NCBI GenBank assembly: GCA_947387485.1
Contig: CANDNT010000001.1
Location: forward strand, 310,001-374,000
DNA: 64,000 bases
Reading direction: 5' to 3'
DNA from: Aquimarina rhabdastrellae
GTDB taxonomy: Bacteria; Bacteroidota; Bacteroidia; Flavobacteriales; Flavobacteriaceae
The position numbers and the translations under genes were made by a program. How positions within the stretch are numbered: the first letter of the stretch is position 1; each line of letters opens with the position of its first letter. Of the stretch, positions 58,238 to 63,989 are shown one piece after another. The notes under the pieces are model-generated. The model was not told the DNA's origin. It ran no database searches and saw only the letters and a program-made list of their open reading frames with translations.

Positions 58238-58343
58238 TAACCCGTAGTACGTTTATAAAAATTGTGCAACTTATAAGATGATTTTGAAAACATTAATCCT
58301 AGTTAGGATTAAAATCAATTAATTATAAATACGCTACGGGTTA
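58238..58343. repeat. Structured inverted-repeat element, possible MITE
   Basis: Terminal inverted repeats TAACCCGTAG (58238-58247) and CTACGGGTTA (58334-58343), with further matching TTTATAA/TTATAAA just inside, surround an internal hairpin TTAATCCTA/TAGGATTAA (58293-58312) nested in TGATTTT/AAAATCA. A TA at each outer edge would fit a TA target duplication. It also contains the stop codon of the MFS gene. A bidirectional terminator is the alternative. Confidence 0.5.
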
Positions 58344-59489
58344 TAATTTTGTTATAGATCGTTTAGTTATGAATATTAAATACATAGTAGAAGCAATAAC
58401 TATAGTATACGTTAGTCCTTCACTACCTATAAAATCCATACTTGTTCCTATAATACATAATCCTAAAAAACCTCCTAAAGCATCCATAAAAACAAAGGAT
58501 GTATTTGCAGAAATCTGATCTTCTTTTCTAAAAACTCTACCTATATATCCTAATCCTGTAGCATATATTCCGCCCATACATCCTCCCCAAATCACCAACA
58601 TAATCAAAGCGATACCTTGACTTGCATATACAGCCAGTGCCAAAAACACTGCACAAATAACCGAAATACATACACAAGCATAAATTATGCGAATATTGTC
58701 TACAAAAGCGGATAAAGAACTTACCAAAGTACCTATACTTACACTCCCCAACATAAACATTGTTACTAATAGTGAAGCTTGATAAGGTGATAAACCATTT
58801 GCTATACCATAGATAGTTAAAAAAGAGGGTAACCCAAAAAAACATATCCCTCCTACCAATGCAGAAAGCATTACAATCTTGGCTTGCTTAAAAACATATT
58901 TCAATCGTATTTCTGAGCTTGCCTGTATACTTGGTCGTTGTTTAATCCCTATAAAAAGAAGAGCTATAGGTATAACCGGGATTATTGTATTAGTAATAAA
59001 TTGAAATTCTTTGGTTGTTATAAATTGCAGCATAATAGGTCCTGATGCAATTCCTAAAGATAAAGATGCCGAATATAACCCTAATAATAAACCTTTTATT
59101 TTTCCTTTAGCGATGAGATTTAGCCATGTTTGTATGACTACCAATAGCATACTTGTAGCCAAACCATAAATAAAAACACCGCTCAACCAACCATAAAAAC
59201 TTTCGTTAAAACTTAAACTATAAATACAGATGCTACGAATCAAAGAAGCTCCTACAATCGTTTGTACTACACCTAGTTTCAATACTATCAAAGAAATATG
59301 TTTAAACAACATTATAGTAGCTAATATCTCAAACGACATAACTATACCGATCCACATTGTACTATACCCCTGCTCTTGCATCGTAAGTGGGAATATGATA
59401 TAATTAATTCCAGAGCTCAGTTGTACACTAAATGTAACCACGATGATCAATAAGGGGATAATTTTCTTCAAAAGACTACTATTATTCAT
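58341..59489 (-). CDS. MFS transporter (YcaD-like), last gene of the amine operon
   Basis: A 382-residue major facilitator protein with 12 predicted helices in two halves. The helix 4-5 region reads VVIQTWLNLIAKGKIKGLLL followed by GLYSASLSLGIASGP, which resembles YcaD-type and sugar/drug exporter MFS proteins. Substrate cannot be read from sequence; given the glutamate-decarboxylase-like and amine-gated-channel-like genes upstream, export or exchange of an amino acid or amine is plausible. It starts six bases after the Cache-sensor gene, and its TAA lies inside the right arm of the inverted-repeat element. Confidence 0.85.
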   Translation of the reverse strand: MNNSSLLKKIIPLLIIVVTFSVQLSSGINYIIFPLTMQEQGYSTMWIGIVMSFEILATIMLFKHISLIVLKLGVVQTIVGASLIRSICIYSLSFNESFYGWLSGVFIYGLATSMLLVVIQTWLNLIAKGKIKGLLLGLYSASLSLGIASGPIMLQFITTKEFQFITNTIIPVIPIALLFIGIKQRPSIQASSEIRLKYVFKQAKIVMLSALVGGICFFGLPSFLTIYGIANGLSPYQASLLVTMFMLGSVSIGTLVSSLSAFVDNIRIIYACVCISVICAVFLALAVYASQGIALIMLVIWGGCMGGIYATGLGYIGRVFRKEDQISANTSFVFMDALGGFLGLCIIGTSMDFIGSEGLTYTIVIASTMYLIFITKRSITKL

Positions 59490-59495
59490 GTTATT

Positions 59496-60872
59496 TTATT
59501 CCTTATATTTTTCTAGATCCATTATCATATAAATTCCAGCAGTAGTCGATGACGTAAAACTATCAATAGTGATCTCATATCGTCTCAATTGATTAATACC
59601 TGTAACAAAATCAAATTCATGATAGTCCATTAGATTATTCTCTACTCTTGGGTTACTATGTTTATAAAACTGTCTTTCAAAATCATAGTTAAAACCTCCT
59701 TCTATAATGCATTTCAATTTAAAATGAGTTAACTGTTCTTCTTCCATTTTCACTGTCATTTTTACATTATCTACATTTGTTTTTTCTGCTACAAAAACAA
59801 TCAATTTTGCGATCATTTCTTTATAAAAGACTATAGGTTTCCCATAAACTTTACTCGGTATTTTTGTTTCTTGATCAATAAATAACATTATTCGTGCTTC
59901 TTGAGCTTGTAAAATCAAACTATAAAACAAGTCATCTAGATCCCAATTTTGATACACTTTTACTATATTCTTCTCCTTATTTATACTTTCTCTGTAGTGT
60001 ATAATATGAGTAATCCAGTCATATAATTGTTTATGACTATAATCTCTTACCTTTAGTTTATATAAGATAGCTCTGTTTATTTTCTCTAAAATGGCTATTC
60101 GCTCTATGTTGGTTTCTTCTATATGTTGTTTAAGTTTTATAACTTGTTCTACTCTTGTACTATTATTTTTAATTACACTTTGTGTATGTTTTCTTATATA
60201 TAAAATCAATAAACCCATTACCAATCCTATAAATAGAATTATTACAGCTGTTTTTTCAAAAGCTATTTTAATAGGTGCTAATCGCGTATAAAAATTACTT
60301 AATTCTAGATCCATACCTAACACACCTACAAAATCTCCTTTATTGTCATAAAAGGGAGCATAACCACTAATAAAAACACCCCATTCATCTTGGTATGGGT
60401 TAGACACTATCGTTTCTTGTTTAGTTAATGCACTAAGTAACTCTGGAGCTGGATTATTATATTCATCCATCAAAGCAGGTGCTTCATCTGGAAATCCATC
60501 TTTGTCATTATCATTTTGTGGACTAGGGTTTAAAACGAAATAAACCTTCTCCTCTTTTAAAATTGTCGTATAGATATAACGTATATTTCTAGCTGCTTTT
60601 CTTATTCTTTCTAGAGGTTCGTTATGTGCTATAAATAAGCTATCACTTCTTTCTGTATTTCTTGTAAACTGTCTATGTATTCTTCCATCTATTGTAGTAG
60701 CTGCAGCTGCGACATTAGATTTTAGTCCTATTTTTATCTCTTCTTTTAATGCTTCTATTGATTTAAGGTACAATAGATATGTTGAAAAAAAGATCAATAC
60801 AATAACGATAAAAGCTGTAGTTATAGCTTCTATTTTAGGTCTAATTTTTGTTATTGTTTTATGGGTACCCAT
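59496..60872 (-). CDS. Cache-domain membrane sensor with degenerate kinase-like C-terminus
   Basis: A 458-residue protein: membrane helix near 16-34, extracytoplasmic Cache/PDC-type ligand domain (about 35-200) with IRYIYTTILKEEKVYFVLNP, a DNDKDGFPDEAP loop and the closing GDFVGVLGMDLELSNF, then a second helix (about 208-224). The cytosolic part has a coiled coil and a helical pair reminiscent of histidine-kinase dimerisation helices, and an alpha/beta region laid out like a HATPase domain, but I see no phospho-acceptor HD/HE motif, no N box and no glycine boxes. It may be a pseudokinase that passes a binding signal to a partner. It lies 12 bases after the ion channel gene. Confidence 0.72.
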   Translation of the reverse strand: MGTHKTITKIRPKIEAITTAFIVIVLIFFSTYLLYLKSIEALKEEIKIGLKSNVAAAATTIDGRIHRQFTRNTERSDSLFIAHNEPLERIRKAARNIRYIYTTILKEEKVYFVLNPSPQNDNDKDGFPDEAPALMDEYNNPAPELLSALTKQETIVSNPYQDEWGVFISGYAPFYDNKGDFVGVLGMDLELSNFYTRLAPIKIAFEKTAVIILFIGLVMGLLILYIRKHTQSVIKNNSTRVEQVIKLKQHIEETNIERIAILEKINRAILYKLKVRDYSHKQLYDWITHIIHYRESINKEKNIVKVYQNWDLDDLFYSLILQAQEARIMLFIDQETKIPSKVYGKPIVFYKEMIAKLIVFVAEKTNVDNVKMTVKMEEEQLTHFKLKCIIEGGFNYDFERQFYKHSNPRVENNLMDYHEFDFVTGINQLRRYEITIDSFTSSTTAGIYMIMDLEKYKE

Positions 60873-60884
60873 TTGATGTTATTT

Positions 60885-61949
60885 TTAGTAGAGAAAAACT
60901 ATAACTTGTATCGTGGTCAAAATCAGAAATGCCATAGGAAAGATATATCTACAATAGGTCATCAATCGTGTATATGTTTCTTTGGATTTTTTCTTTAATA
61001 TAGCACTACCAAAAACTATAATCACCAAATTAATGAAGATACTCAAATACCCTACTGTAATCAGCGCTTCTATAAATGTTCTATAGGGTAAATTAGGTAG
61101 CATACTTGATGTATTAAAATTAAATGCTACCAGTGTAAGCATCAATGTAAAACTTGTTGTTAATTGATCAGAGATATTTTTTATCCAAAAAACCGACCAA
61201 GATATGCTTATAATTAAAAACAAAGGAACTATTAATTGCCAAAAATAATATGCCACAAGTCGCTCTGCCGTTACTTCAATATTATATCTAGAAAAAGTCG
61301 TTCCATTTTCGTCAAGATGAGAATATTCATACGAATTAATATATGCTCTCTTAGATGTGATTTCCCATTCTTCGGTAATTTCATTAGGATCAAATGGTAA
61401 TGGCGAATTTACCTCATCAAAATATAATGTTCTTGTATCATATGAGAACCCTTCTAATTGTATTACAAATTTTTGTGTATCAAAAGGAAATTTCCTAAAA
61501 TCCATCTCGGTAGTAAATAAGGCGTCAAATCGTTCATTATAAGTAACTTTCCCATTAGGTCTTATAATCACTTGTTTATTTTGTACATTTCTATTACCTA
61601 TTATATTAATAAACTCAAAGGCTGGAATCCATATGGATTTTCCGATCATTTCATCTGCAATATCATTTTCGTAAATACGTACTTCTTCTACCGTATTGTC
61701 GTAGGTTTCATTATACCAAGTAGCAACAAAATACCCATCAACCCCATAAGTCTCATCCACTGTGTTGATTCCGTATATTTTATTAATATGAATCATCACA
61801 TCCATGGCTATAGGCTTTTCTGGCAATACCATTTTCTCTTGAGTGCCACTATCTTCTACTATCAATGGTATAATATCCTGATTTATATCAATTGTATGAC
61901 TCATAAAGAGCATATAAAATTGTATTATATAATTAGCCAGCATTATCAT
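60885..61949 (-). CDS. Pentameric ligand-gated ion channel, ELIC-like
   Basis: A 354-residue prokaryotic member of the Cys-loop receptor superfamily, close to Erwinia ELIC. Residues about 46-230 are the ligand-binding beta-sandwich: INKIYGINTVDETYGVDGYF, loop A SIWIPAFEFINIIGN, and MDFRKFPFDTQKF (the FPFD of the pseudo-Cys loop, with no cysteine pair). Four helices follow: M1 YYFWQLIVPLFLIISISWSV, M2 from QLTTSFTLMLTLVAF, M3 after LPNLPYRTF, M4 at the end. Amine-contact residues of ELIC are kept as Glu112, Asn138, Glu166, Phe168, Tyr209 and Phe219; ELIC Phe19 is His54 here. The start overlaps the decarboxylase gene by 17 bases (alternative ATG at 61943). A cation channel opened by primary amines is inferred. 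Confidence 0.93.
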   Translation of the reverse strand: MIMLANYIIQFYMLFMSHTIDINQDIIPLIVEDSGTQEKMVLPEKPIAMDVMIHINKIYGINTVDETYGVDGYFVATWYNETYDNTVEEVRIYENDIADEMIGKSIWIPAFEFINIIGNRNVQNKQVIIRPNGKVTYNERFDALFTTEMDFRKFPFDTQKFVIQLEGFSYDTRTLYFDEVNSPLPFDPNEITEEWEITSKRAYINSYEYSHLDENGTTFSRYNIEVTAERLVAYYFWQLIVPLFLIISISWSVFWIKNISDQLTTSFTLMLTLVAFNFNTSSMLPNLPYRTFIEALITVGYLSIFINLVIIVFGSAILKKKSKETYTRLMTYCRYIFPMAFLILTTIQVIVFLY

Positions 61950-63210
61950 CTTTTAAAATTTTATAACATTCTACAATATCATTAATCAACTGTGTTATTT
62001 GTGTCAAGCTCATATCTTGACGTACAACTACTCTCATCACCGTTATTGCTTTTAGTTCTCCAGATAATTGGTACTGAGGTAACATCCATTCTCGTTCTCT
62101 AAGTAACTTTGTAAATGCTCTTATTTTAAAAGGAGGAGCTTCCTTAAACTTAAAAGCTACTACGGGTAGTGTATTCATCGATACTACATCTAGAAATCCT
62201 GTTTTTTGGAGTGCTTCAGATAAAATAGATGCATTCCACAAACAGTTTTCAACCATTTCTCCATACCCCTTTATTCCGTAATGCATAAAACAAAACTGTT
62301 GCGCTACAATTAAGGCTGATGATCTCGAAAAACTTACCGTAAATGATTCTGATTCTCCAGATAAATATGCTGATGTTACGTTTAGGCCTTTAGGAAAACT
62401 CTGCTTATCTCTAAATATCAGCCATCCTATACCTGGATATACCAATCCATATTTATGCCCTGAAAGATTAATTGATTTTACATTAGGTAATTTAAAATCC
62501 CACTCTATTTCTTTTAATTCTTGCGCAAATGGATAAATAAACCCTCCTATAGCTGCATCAACATGAATCCCTATATCCCATTTATTAACCTTATTTATGT
62601 TACTTAACATATTGTCGATTTCTACTATAGGATCACAATAACCTAGATAAGTACACCCTAATATCGCTACAACGCCAATAGTAGATTCATCAAGTGCATT
62701 TTCTACAGCTTTTATAGGATATGTGTTTATTGCGGTAAGTGCTATTTCTTTAATTTTTATATCGAGAAATCGAGCACATTTATACCAAGAAATATGAGCA
62801 TTACTACAGAGTATAATATTAGGTTCTCCTTTTCTTCCCATAGCATTCCATCGCCATTTTGCTGCAAGTAACGCCATAAATATCGCCTCAGAAGATCCTG
62901 TTGTTGAACTCCCATACAACTCCTCTTGATTAGGGATATGTAATAGGTTTCCTATTATTTTTAATACCTGTTGATGTATTTTTGTTGTTTGTTGGTATTC
63001 ATTTTGATTTATCAAGTTTTTACCTAAAGTCTCTTGTATCAATAGTTTTGCTTCCTTAGGCATTTCTATTGTGGTATAACTTCCTAAATCGTATTTAGGT
63101 AATCCATCTTTCTTTAATTCACCTGATATCAACTCAAAAGCTTGATAAGCTGGCATTCCATCAGGCAACATTTTTATCATTTCAAACAGTAGAGTATTTG
63201 TCTTTGCCAT
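61933..63210 (-). CDS. PLP-dependent glutamate-decarboxylase-like enzyme
   Basis: A 425-residue group II decarboxylase closest in pattern to E. coli GadA/GadB. Shared blocks: NLINQNEYQQT (GadB NWIDKEEYPQS), TTGSSEAIFMALLAAKWRW, HVDAAIGGFIYPF with the cofactor Asp218, and SGHKYGL with the PLP lysine Lys253. The GadB substrate pocket ATF appears as GSY, a conservative change. It lacks the long GadB C-terminal tail, so acid gating is probably different. Expected reaction: L-glutamate to GABA and CO2; aspartate or another acid cannot be excluded. I use the ATG at 63210 (MAKTNTLLF). The 3' end overlaps the ion channel gene. Confidence 0.88.
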   Translation of the reverse strand: MAKTNTLLFEMIKMLPDGMPAYQAFELISGELKKDGLPKYDLGSYTTIEMPKEAKLLIQETLGKNLINQNEYQQTTKIHQQVLKIIGNLLHIPNQEELYGSSTTGSSEAIFMALLAAKWRWNAMGRKGEPNIILCSNAHISWYKCARFLDIKIKEIALTAINTYPIKAVENALDESTIGVVAILGCTYLGYCDPIVEIDNMLSNINKVNKWDIGIHVDAAIGGFIYPFAQELKEIEWDFKLPNVKSINLSGHKYGLVYPGIGWLIFRDKQSFPKGLNVTSAYLSGESESFTVSFSRSSALIVAQQFCFMHYGIKGYGEMVENCLWNASILSEALQKTGFLDVVSMNTLPVVAFKFKEAPPFKIRAFTKLLREREWMLPQYQLSGELKAITVMRVVVRQDMSLTQITQLINDIVECYKILKDDNAG

Positions 63211-63242
63211 AGTCAAAAAAGTTAGATTAAACTATTAGATAT

Positions 63243-63989
63243 TTATTCAAAAGCTATAGTCAATCCTATCTGATAGCTAGACACTTTCTCTCTAATTACA
63301 TAAACTATACCTGCGGTTAATGAAGCTGATATACCTTGACTAATATTTTTACTCGTTGCTATACTTAGAACTGAATCTCTTAATCCATTAGCTTCATCTG
63401 CATTACTTCTATACGCTATGCTTCCGTTAATATCAATGGGATATCCTTTCCAATTAAAAATCGTTTCTCGTATGTTAAAGATGGTATATAATGCTTTATT
63501 ATCGTTGATATAAATACTCAATCTAGGATTCCAAGGTTTTGAATATTGTATCGCTCCCATAACTTCATAAAAGTTTGTATTATCAAGCTTCTCTGCTATT
63601 GAAACTGGAGCGTAATAATAAATTCCGGCTATAGAAAACACAAAATCATCATTTAATGCATAATCATAATTTAAAGTAATTGAAGTTTCAAGATCATTTG
63701 TTTTGGGATCCACTCCTACACTATTCCAAACATTTAAGGATAATCCTATTCTTGTAAAAGTATAGGTTACACTAGGCTGTATGGCTTCATAATCTGATAC
63801 TATATCTCTCCATATGTAATTCGTTGTAGTATATAACTGAAACTGTAACGCATTGGTAGGTTGAACTATTATTAATGCTTCTTCTTTGGTTTCTTTACGA
63901 AGCATTTTCAATTTTAATTCTTGAGCATTTAACGTCTTATTACATAGACATATCAAAAGCACATAAACCAGAGGGATTGATTTATTCAT
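63243..63989 (-). CDS. TorF-like outer-membrane porin, first gene of the amine operon
   Basis: A 248-residue outer-membrane beta-barrel candidate. The signal peptide covers 1-22 (ending TLNAQ). The mature protein has alternating strands with aromatic girdles: FQLYTTTNYIWRDIVSDYEA, a TorF-type opening, then repeated strands such as NLETSITLNYDYALNDDFVF-like segments, ending IGLTIAFE with the terminal aromatic expected for barrel insertion. TorF-type proteins are putative porins with unknown substrates. The decarboxylase start is 32 bases downstream, so it probably lets a small substrate cross the outer membrane. Only 11 bases precede its start here, so the operon promoter is outside the window. 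Confidence 0.75.
   Translation of the reverse strand: MNKSIPLVYVLLICLCNKTLNAQELKLKMLRKETKEEALIIVQPTNALQFQLYTTTNYIWRDIVSDYEAIQPSVTYTFTRIGLSLNVWNSVGVDPKTNDLETSITLNYDYALNDDFVFSIAGIYYYAPVSIAEKLDNTNFYEVMGAIQYSKPWNPRLSIYINDNKALYTIFNIRETIFNWKGYPIDINGSIAYRSNADEANGLRDSVLSIATSKNISQGISASLTAGIVYVIREKVSSYQIGLTIAFE

What the first reader, a model, noticed from the sequence alone, without database searches (positions are those of the whole stretch)
58341..63989. Operon pairing a glutamate-decarboxylase-like enzyme with an ELIC-type ligand-gated channel
Five minus-strand genes lie with gaps of -17 to 32 bases: a porin-like protein, a GadB-like PLP decarboxylase, an ELIC-like pentameric channel, a Cache-domain membrane sensor and an MFS transporter. 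Family knowledge: GadB makes GABA from glutamate, and ELIC is opened by primary amines including GABA. Putting the maker and the receptor of the same class of molecule in one coupled operon suggests a bacterial amine signalling or feedback unit: uptake, synthesis, gating of ion flux, sensing and export. This parallels GABA synthesis and GABA-A-type receptors in animals. I cannot tell from sequence whether such an operon has been described.
Basis: partly seen in the sequence, partly recalled or inferred. Interest (0 to 1): 0.95.

Follow-up and report, generated by a model that had tools for sequence, protein, structure and literature searches.

The report
Amine-making enzyme paired with amine-gated channel
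Some marine and plant-associated bacteria keep the gene for an amino-acid decarboxylase directly before the gene for an ELIC-type ligand-gated ion channel, and two different enzyme families fill that slot in different lineages, so the enzyme likely makes the small amine that would open its partner channel, a self-contained bacterial parallel to transmitter-and-receptor signalling.

Summary
The operon is real (gaps -17 to 32 bases), but the pairing is not new: Zimmermann and Dutzler (2011) noted an annotated glutamate decarboxylase beside ELIC and suggested GABA. What I add: (1) Of 26 ELIC-type loci, 17 carry a decarboxylase upstream on the same strand (16 as the next gene), in Bacteroidota and Pseudomonadota; Cache and MFS genes follow in 11. 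(2) The enzyme is swapped: GAD-type in Bacteroidota and Cohaesibacter, but a methionine/serine/histidine-decarboxylase-group enzyme in Dickeya, Vibrio and a Pseudomonadales MAG. In genus Dickeya 7 of 9 genomes have the channel, the same 7 have a decarboxylase beside it, and 0 of 9 have a GAD over cut-off, so the published GABA argument likely rests on a mis-annotation. (3) The window's GAD-type enzyme departs from canonical GADs at two active-site positions; its product need not be GABA. (4) The Cache protein has a histidine-kinase fold without conserved catalytic residues. (5) The unit continues past the window into three DUF2589 genes; a same-genus genome keeps nine genes in the same order at another site. 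That the enzyme makes the channel's agonist is the best reading; ligand, cotranscription and function are untested.

The parts
63243..63989 (-). 248-aa exported, porin-like protein (first gene of the tight cluster)
   Evidence: ORF; no Pfam or NCBIfam hit; relatives in L003 and L004 only among the 26 loci; 46% identical in L072
61933..63210 (-). GAD-type PLP decarboxylase (425 aa from the ATG; a TTG start at 63216 gives 427 aa); PLP lysine K255 in the 427-aa numbering; N at GadB D86 position, I at GadB S246 position
   Evidence: TIGR01788 401.1 bits vs 380.4; PDB GAD 3hbx E 3.3e-87; only gene over that cut-off in the genome; residues
60885..61949 (-). ELIC-type pentameric ligand-gated ion channel subunit, 354 aa; overlaps the decarboxylase gene by 17 bases
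   Evidence: ELIC E 9.8e-79; amine-site residues Y38, N103, E131, F133, Y174, F187 of ELIC all kept; only PF02931 match in the genome
59496..60872 (-). membrane protein with periplasmic Cache domain and a degenerate histidine-kinase-fold cytoplasmic part (likely pseudokinase)
   Evidence: Pfam; AlphaFold2 mean pLDDT 81.4, pTM 0.43; Foldseek to RetS, GacS and other histidine kinases; cytoplasmic half 1 invariant column of 230, periplasmic 35 of 140, over 10 sequences
58341..59489 (-). MFS transporter, substrate unknown, predicted amine exporter
   Evidence: MFS_1 79 bits; no PDB match at E 0.001; follows the Cache gene in 11 of 26 loci

Best explanation
This is a conserved gene unit in which an amino-acid decarboxylase is encoded immediately upstream of an ELIC-type ligand-gated ion channel, and the enzyme likely makes a small primary amine that would act as the channel's own agonist. 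Predicted course, step by step: the cytoplasmic PLP enzyme removes CO2 from an amino acid (family assignment shown; substrate inferred and probably not fixed as glutamate); the MFS protein exports the amine to the periplasm and an outer-membrane protein lets it pass (inferred); the amine binds the conserved site of ELIC (site conservation shown; binding inferred) and opens a cation path through the inner membrane, changing membrane potential or ion content (inferred from ELIC); the Cache pseudokinase, whose periplasmic and membrane parts are conserved and whose cytoplasmic part is not, acts as a second sensor or accessory subunit of the channel rather than as a kinase (inferred). The ligand has probably changed in evolution together with the enzyme: a GAD-type enzyme in Bacteroidota and Cohaesibacter, a methionine/serine/histidine-decarboxylase-group enzyme with ELIC itself.
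For: Pairing kept: 17 of 26 ELIC-type loci have the decarboxylase upstream on the same strand, 16 as the next gene; in the 15 of these outside the window the gap from enzyme stop to the nearest in-frame ATG is -14 to 25 bases in 14 and 185 in one (L019). Enzyme swap at the same position: 11 loci GAD-type, 6 loci the other subfamily; the Dickeya enzyme is nearest to L-methionine decarboxylase 7cif, E 8.2e-64, then serine and histidine decarboxylases; TIGR01788 gives it 27.2 bits against 380.4. In genus Dickeya ELIC in 7 of 9 genomes, a neighbouring decarboxylase match in the same 7, none in the other 2. In 9 of 9 GAD-type genomes examined the ELIC-linked enzyme is the only TIGR01788 match over cut-off, likewise in the window's genome. 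Amine site: Y38, E77, N103, E131, F133 and Y174 in 17 of 17 linked channels; N103 in 0 of 9 unlinked ones. Conservation of nine genes in order in a same-genus genome with synonymous sites near saturation.
Against: No ligand, current, product or transcript was measured. 9 of 26 ELIC-type channels have no decarboxylase of either type within the fetched flanks, and because these nine are one clade the N103 difference may be one event. The enzyme type follows the channel's phylogeny, so the 17 pairings are few independent origins. Six Flavobacterium/Leptobacterium loci lack Cache and MFS. F187 is Y in 4 of 17 linked channels, and the acidic residue at the inner pore mouth (E229) is E in 6, D in 3, N in 6, T in 2 of 17, so ion selectivity may differ. 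In one search six of the 82 more distant GADs also carry I at the S246 position, so that mark is not confined to proven ELIC neighbours.
Confidence: 0.6

Rival explanations
1. Amino-acid-dependent acid or pH homeostasis: the decarboxylase consumes protons, the MFS exchanges product for substrate, and the channel balances charge; the amine need not be a signal.
For: GAD systems commonly serve acid resistance (established knowledge). Enzyme and transporter share an operon.
Against: No GadC-type antiporter was found among the five genes. The enzyme family is swapped while the ligand-gated channel stays. A channel with a conserved amine-binding site is not needed for pH balance.
Confidence: 0.15
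2. ELIC as a gated exit or entry path for the amine itself: the product opens the channel and permeates it as a cation.
For: ELIC passes monovalent cations with little discrimination (passages of PMC3119659). The order enzyme-channel-transporter fits a product-handling unit.
Against: The agonist site faces the periplasm; a product made inside would first have to be exported. The unit already carries a transporter in 11 loci.
Confidence: 0.08
3. The channel is an effector of a larger DUF2589-centred system (conflict, envelope stress or secretion) and the decarboxylase supplies a trigger in that context.
For: DUF2589 genes lie in 11 of the 17 decarboxylase-linked loci and in 0 of the 9 unlinked ones, within the fetched flanks, although only 6 of 149 genomes of the family have any; DUF2589a is 96% identical between two same-genus units whose GAD is 65% identical. 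Patatin-like and lipase-like genes lie nearby in some loci.
Against: DUF2589 also occurs without ELIC in its own small clusters. The Dickeya, Cohaesibacter and three of four Vibrio loci show no DUF2589. Its fold model is poor and matches nothing.
Confidence: 0.1
4. Simple neighbour hitch-hiking: genes moved together without a functional link.
For: Patchy distribution: ELIC in 5 of 52 same-genus genomes; the same-genus unit sits elsewhere in the chromosome.
Against: Overlapping or abutting junctions, two enzyme families in one slot, presence and absence together in Dickeya, order kept despite near-saturated synonymous sites.
Confidence: 0.05

Closest known systems
ELIC locus of Erwinia chrysanthemi / Dickeya (Zimmermann and Dutzler 2011, PMC3119659)
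   Same: A PLP decarboxylase gene next to the ELIC gene in one predicted operon; the idea that it processes the ligand is printed there (passages).
   Different: The linked Dickeya enzyme examined here (L011) is not GAD-family; the window's is GAD-type. The passages read name no Cache protein, MFS or DUF2589 gene; Figure 6A itself was not seen.
Predicted operons of bacterial pLGICs with stand-alone Cache or PBP-II genes (Tasneem et al. 2004/2005, PMC549065)
   Same: A stand-alone Cache protein encoded with a pLGIC; proposed chemosensory role (passages).
   Different: No decarboxylase is mentioned in that text (0 occurrences). The Cache protein here carries a histidine-kinase-fold remnant.
Bacterial GadB/GadC acid-resistance system (recalled)
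   Same: Member of the same decarboxylase family by TIGR01788.
   Different: No APC antiporter among the five genes; N at D86 and I at S246 positions.
Animal GABA synthesis and GABA-A receptors (recalled)
   Same: PLP decarboxylase plus a homologous pentameric channel.
   Different: Within one cell and one operon; the product of the window's enzyme is unknown.

Membership tests
ELIC-type pentameric ligand-gated ion channel | Sequence match over ligand-binding and transmembrane domains | tested here: met
   ELIC, E 9.8e-79, residues 44-352
ELIC-type pentameric ligand-gated ion channel | Amine-site residues Y38, N103, E131, F133, Y174, F187 named in PMC3119659 | tested here: met
   All six kept in the window's channel
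ELIC-type pentameric ligand-gated ion channel | Acidic residue at inner pore mouth (E229) | tested here: met
   D in the window; N or T in 8 of 17 linked relatives
ELIC-type pentameric ligand-gated ion channel | Opens with primary amines | not testable with these tools
   needs electrophysiology
Glutamate decarboxylase (TIGR01788) | Score over the curated cut-off | tested here: met
   401.1 vs 380.4 bits
Glutamate decarboxylase (TIGR01788) | PLP lysine, preceding His, carboxylate-binding Arg (GadB K276, H275, R422) | tested here: met
   K255, H254, R395; roles recalled
Glutamate decarboxylase (TIGR01788) | Distal-carboxylate pocket residue D86 and S246 as in canonical GADs | tested here: not met
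   N and I in the window; 82 of 82 and 76 of 82 of the more distant GADs keep D and S; the pocket role of D86 is recalled, the role of S246 unknown to me
Glutamate decarboxylase (TIGR01788) | Turns glutamate into GABA | not testable with these tools
   needs enzyme assay
Glutamate decarboxylase, for the Dickeya enzyme of the ELIC locus | Score over the TIGR01788 cut-off | tested here: not met
   27.2 vs 380.4 bits in L011; 0 of 9 Dickeya genomes over cut-off
Methionine/serine/histidine-decarboxylase group, for the Dickeya enzyme | Nearest solved enzymes; PLP lysine | tested here: met
   7cif E 8.2e-64, 8jik 2.6e-30, 7erv 9.9e-26; SPYKW motif in 6 of 6 loci
Histidine decarboxylase PRK02769, for the same enzyme | Score over the curated cut-off 305 | tested here: not met
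   174.1 to 245.4 bits in the four loci tested
Sensor histidine kinase (Cache protein) | DHp and CA fold | tested here: inconclusive
   Predicted fold matches RetS, GacS and others, E down to about 1e-8, on a model with pTM 0.43
Sensor histidine kinase (Cache protein) | Conserved phospho-histidine and ATP-binding motifs | tested here: not met
   No His column at 80% or more; 1 invariant column in the cytoplasmic half, 10 sequences; no HK family hit
GAD-type acid-resistance operon | GadC-type amino-acid antiporter beside the decarboxylase | tested here: not met
   The transporter is MFS_1

The most novel reading that the evidence does not exclude
Bacteria carry transplantable autocrine amine-signalling units: a decarboxylase that makes the agonist, an ELIC-type channel that it opens, a Cache pseudokinase that serves as the channel's accessory sensor, an exporter, and DUF2589 proteins as an unrecognised component. 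Enzyme and channel change ligand together, so the native agonist of ELIC itself is the product of a methionine/serine/histidine-group decarboxylase (a small neutral alkyl- or thio-alkylamine) and not GABA, and the window's unit uses yet another amine.
Probability: 0.4. Interest if true: 0.88.

Novelty: new variant of a known kind. Interest (0 to 1): 0.72.

Why it matters
ELIC is one of the most used structural models for nerve-cell receptors (here over 20 of the PDB sequences matched by the window's channel carry its name), yet its natural ligand and role are unknown. If enzyme and channel are a matched pair, the operon names the ligand: assay the enzyme, then test its product on the channel. 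The enzyme swap between lineages makes the claim testable by cross-matching, and it would move the search for ELIC's ligand away from GABA. It would also show agonist synthesis and a Cys-loop-type receptor as one heritable unit in bacteria.

Tried and rejected
Rejected: that the pairing is undescribed. Rejected: that the Dickeya enzyme is a GAD. Rejected as unsupported: recent transfer of the whole unit between the two same-genus genomes, since synonymous sites are near saturation in all nine genes (pS 0.60-0.80). Not settled: R91 of ELIC as a mark of a GABA-type ligand. It is Q in 8, R in 8 and H in 1 of 17 linked channels; my memory that R91 touches GABA's carboxylate could not be checked because the paper is not held.

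Led nowhere: fold of DUF2589 (mean pLDDT 63.6; best PDB match SecB, E 0.069); PDB sequence search with the MFS and Cache proteins (no match); promoter and terminator scan of the unit (44 promoter-like sites against 53.1 in shuffles, 1 terminator-like against 3.5), so operon borders rest on gene spacing alone; one literature search with a too common term. The insertion site was only half tested: in 10 fetched same-genus regions the PCM-Gfo-HAD-DUF1015 block is present without any gene of the unit, but CobW, the other flank, was not found in them, and the search for CobW orthologues failed.
Full report
What is there. Five minus-strand genes at 58341-63989 encode an MFS transporter, a Cache-domain membrane protein, an ELIC-type channel, a GAD-type decarboxylase and a porin-like exported protein, with gaps of 6, 12, -17 and 26 or 32 bases. 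The channel is closest in the PDB to ELIC (E 9.8e-79) and is the only PF02931 match in the genome; the decarboxylase passes the TIGR01788 cut-off and is the only gene over it in the genome. The host is a flavobacterium, probably Aquimarina: this is inferred, since a same-genus genome (G715) has a contig of the same length as that of Aquimarina sp. TRL1.

The unit is larger than the finding. Beyond the window's end lie three DUF2589 genes and a 194-aa gene (called c5 here) on the same strand. In same-genus genome G715 the order c5, DUF2589a, b, c, porin, GAD, ELIC, Cache, MFS is identical, at a chromosomal place different from the window's flanking genes. Protein identities over the codon-aligned parts are 0.76, 0.96, 0.80, 0.89, 0.46, 0.65, 0.73, 0.59 and 0.79; synonymous differences are near saturation in all nine (pS 0.60-0.80), as in four control genes (0.67-0.79). 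So the order has been held by selection for long, and DUF2589a is more conserved in protein (dN 0.025) than the four controls (0.099-0.217). ELIC-type channels are rare: 5 of 52 same-genus genomes, 3 strong matches (E 1e-50 or better, one of them only 26% identical to the ELIC type) among 397 family genomes, 4 strong matches in 299 genomes of the genus of Flavobacterium sp. SLB02.

Survey. One scan of genome contigs gave 25 loci; with the window, 26 (two loci are from Vibrio penaeicida, two from Maribellus). Of 26, 17 have a decarboxylase upstream of the channel on the same strand. In 16 it is the next gene; in L004 three ORFs lie between. Nine (L012, L016, L017, L020-L025) have neither type in the fetched flanks, some of which are cut by contig ends. 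In the 15 next-gene loci outside the window the distance from enzyme stop to the nearest in-frame ATG is -14 to 25 bases in 14 and 185 in L019. Cache and MFS genes follow the channel in 11 of 26, all with a decarboxylase. DUF2589 genes lie in 11 of the 17 and 0 of the 9, while 6 of 149 genomes of the family hold DUF2589 at all, two of these six being ELIC genomes already counted.

Two enzymes in one slot. Eleven loci carry the GAD-type enzyme (Bacteroidota, and Cohaesibacter of the Pseudomonadota); six (Vibrio, Dickeya, a Pseudomonadales MAG) carry another PF00282 subfamily. The Dickeya one matches L-methionine decarboxylase best (E 8.2e-64), then serine and histidine decarboxylases. TIGR01788 gives 27.2, 30.6 and 36.5 bits to three of the four loci tested and no hit at E 0.001 to the fourth; the histidine-decarboxylase model gives 174 to 245 bits, under its cut-off of 305. 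All six keep the PLP lysine in SPYKW and a G[YF]QTNQ motif; in the alignment its Q sits at the residue that differs between 7cif and 7cig. In genus Dickeya 7 of 9 genomes have ELIC; the same 7 have a weak TIGR01788 match beside it on the same strand (match edges 269 to 416 bases apart) and the other 2 have neither; 0 of 9 reach the cut-off. Only the enzyme of L011 was compared in detail, and the strain of the 2011 paper was not fetched, so the statement that its 'glutamate decarboxylase' is a mis-annotation is an inference from the genus. In all 9 GAD-type genomes looked at, the ELIC-linked gene is the only one over the GAD cut-off.

Is it a GAD? The window's enzyme keeps the PLP lysine, the preceding His and the conserved Arg, but has N where GadB has D86 and I where GadB has S246. 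Over 130 aligned sequences: all 11 ELIC-linked enzymes have I, 5 of 11 have N; of the 82 more distant GADs 82 keep D and 76 keep S. D86 is, from memory, part of the pocket for glutamate's distal carboxylate. The change could mean another substrate, or glutamate at a less acidic pH. The product is therefore open.

Channel. Residues that PMC3119659 names in the ELIC amine site (Y38, N103, E131, F133, Y174, F187) are all kept in the window. Over the 17 linked channels five of the six are invariant and F187 is Y in 4; in the 9 unlinked channels N103 is D or E in 9 and F187 is Y in 9. The tree puts the nine unlinked in one clade (100/100), the six of the second enzyme type in one (100/97) and the six Flavobacterium/Leptobacterium in one (100/99); the other five GAD-type rows need one or two changes. 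Hence enzyme type and channel changed together, in few events. The inner-mouth residue E229 is E in the six second-type channels and D, N or T in the GAD-type ones, so ion selectivity may differ.

Cache protein. The model (mean pLDDT 81.4, pTM 0.43, 10 sequences) shows two transmembrane helices around a Cache domain and then helices and an alpha/beta domain that Foldseek matches to histidine kinases such as RetS and GacS. No histidine is conserved there; 1 of 230 columns is invariant against 35 of 140 in the periplasmic part. I read it as a pseudokinase whose work is done by the periplasmic and membrane parts, likely with the channel. A stand-alone Cache gene in a predicted pLGIC operon was reported before (PMC549065, passages).

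Literature. Nine searches bear on the question of print, over open-licence PubMed Central only. The pairing and the GABA idea are in PMC3119659 (passages). DUF2589 occurs in one paper (listing only). PMC4795631 (find) has none of the words decarboxylase, operon or neighbourhood. PMC9674596 and PMC5127831 were seen in passages. I found no report of the enzyme swap, the Cache-MFS order with a decarboxylase, or the DUF2589 link in these searches; subscription papers are not covered.

Verdict. A real, conserved maker-and-receptor unit, previously glimpsed in one species and probably misread there. Best reading: the decarboxylase makes the channel's agonist (0.6). Shown: gene order, conservation, enzyme families, conserved sites. 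Inferred: substrate, ligand match, export, gating in the cell, the Cache protein's role.

Noticed in passing
L002 9215-11229 (G000 contig C1, about 374.2-376.2 kb, just beyond the window's end): Three DUF2589 genes upstream of the operon; DUF2589 occurs in 11 of 26 ELIC loci (all with a decarboxylase) though rare in the family (6 of 149 genomes), and one copy is 96% identical between two same-genus units.
   Followed up: partly
L016 8242-9612, L017 9133-9741, L023 7708-8571: In three ELIC-type loci without a decarboxylase (Maribellus, Algibacter) related genes lie just upstream of the channel (in L023 one ORF lies between); the L016 and L017 proteins carry the eCIS_core domain (PF13699), the L023 one was assigned by similarity.
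   Followed up: no
L002 11586-12170: A 194-aa protein without Pfam match (E up to 0.1, only one sub-threshold hit) that recurs in 7 of 26 loci (window, five Flavobacterium, Leptobacterium) near DUF2589; its H...SAGC motif recalls L,D-transpeptidases by eye.
   Followed up: no
L003 5522-6778; L009 7483-8553; L003 6900-7442: A patatin-like phospholipase, a lipase-like protein with a GGHSRGA motif (sub-threshold Lipase_3) and a small protein that by eye has caspase-like His and Cys motifs lie just upstream of some decarboxylase-ELIC units.
   Followed up: no
L009 5345-6586, L018 6579-7787 and four other Flavobacterium loci: In the six loci without Cache and MFS, a related outer-membrane efflux protein gene (OEP in the two tested) stands upstream of the decarboxylase, perhaps the counterpart of the window's porin-like protein.
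   Followed up: no
L045, L046, L047, L048, L049: Stand-alone DUF2589 genes in other family genomes, and a fourth copy in the window's genome, sit in small conserved clusters with two unassigned genes; in L046 and L048 a related third gene follows, a subtilase in L048.
   Followed up: partly
plasmid NZ_LR134418.1, 289364-290233: A distant (26% identity) pLGIC gene on a Legionella adelaidensis plasmid, the only plasmid record matched by the window's channel.
   Followed up: no
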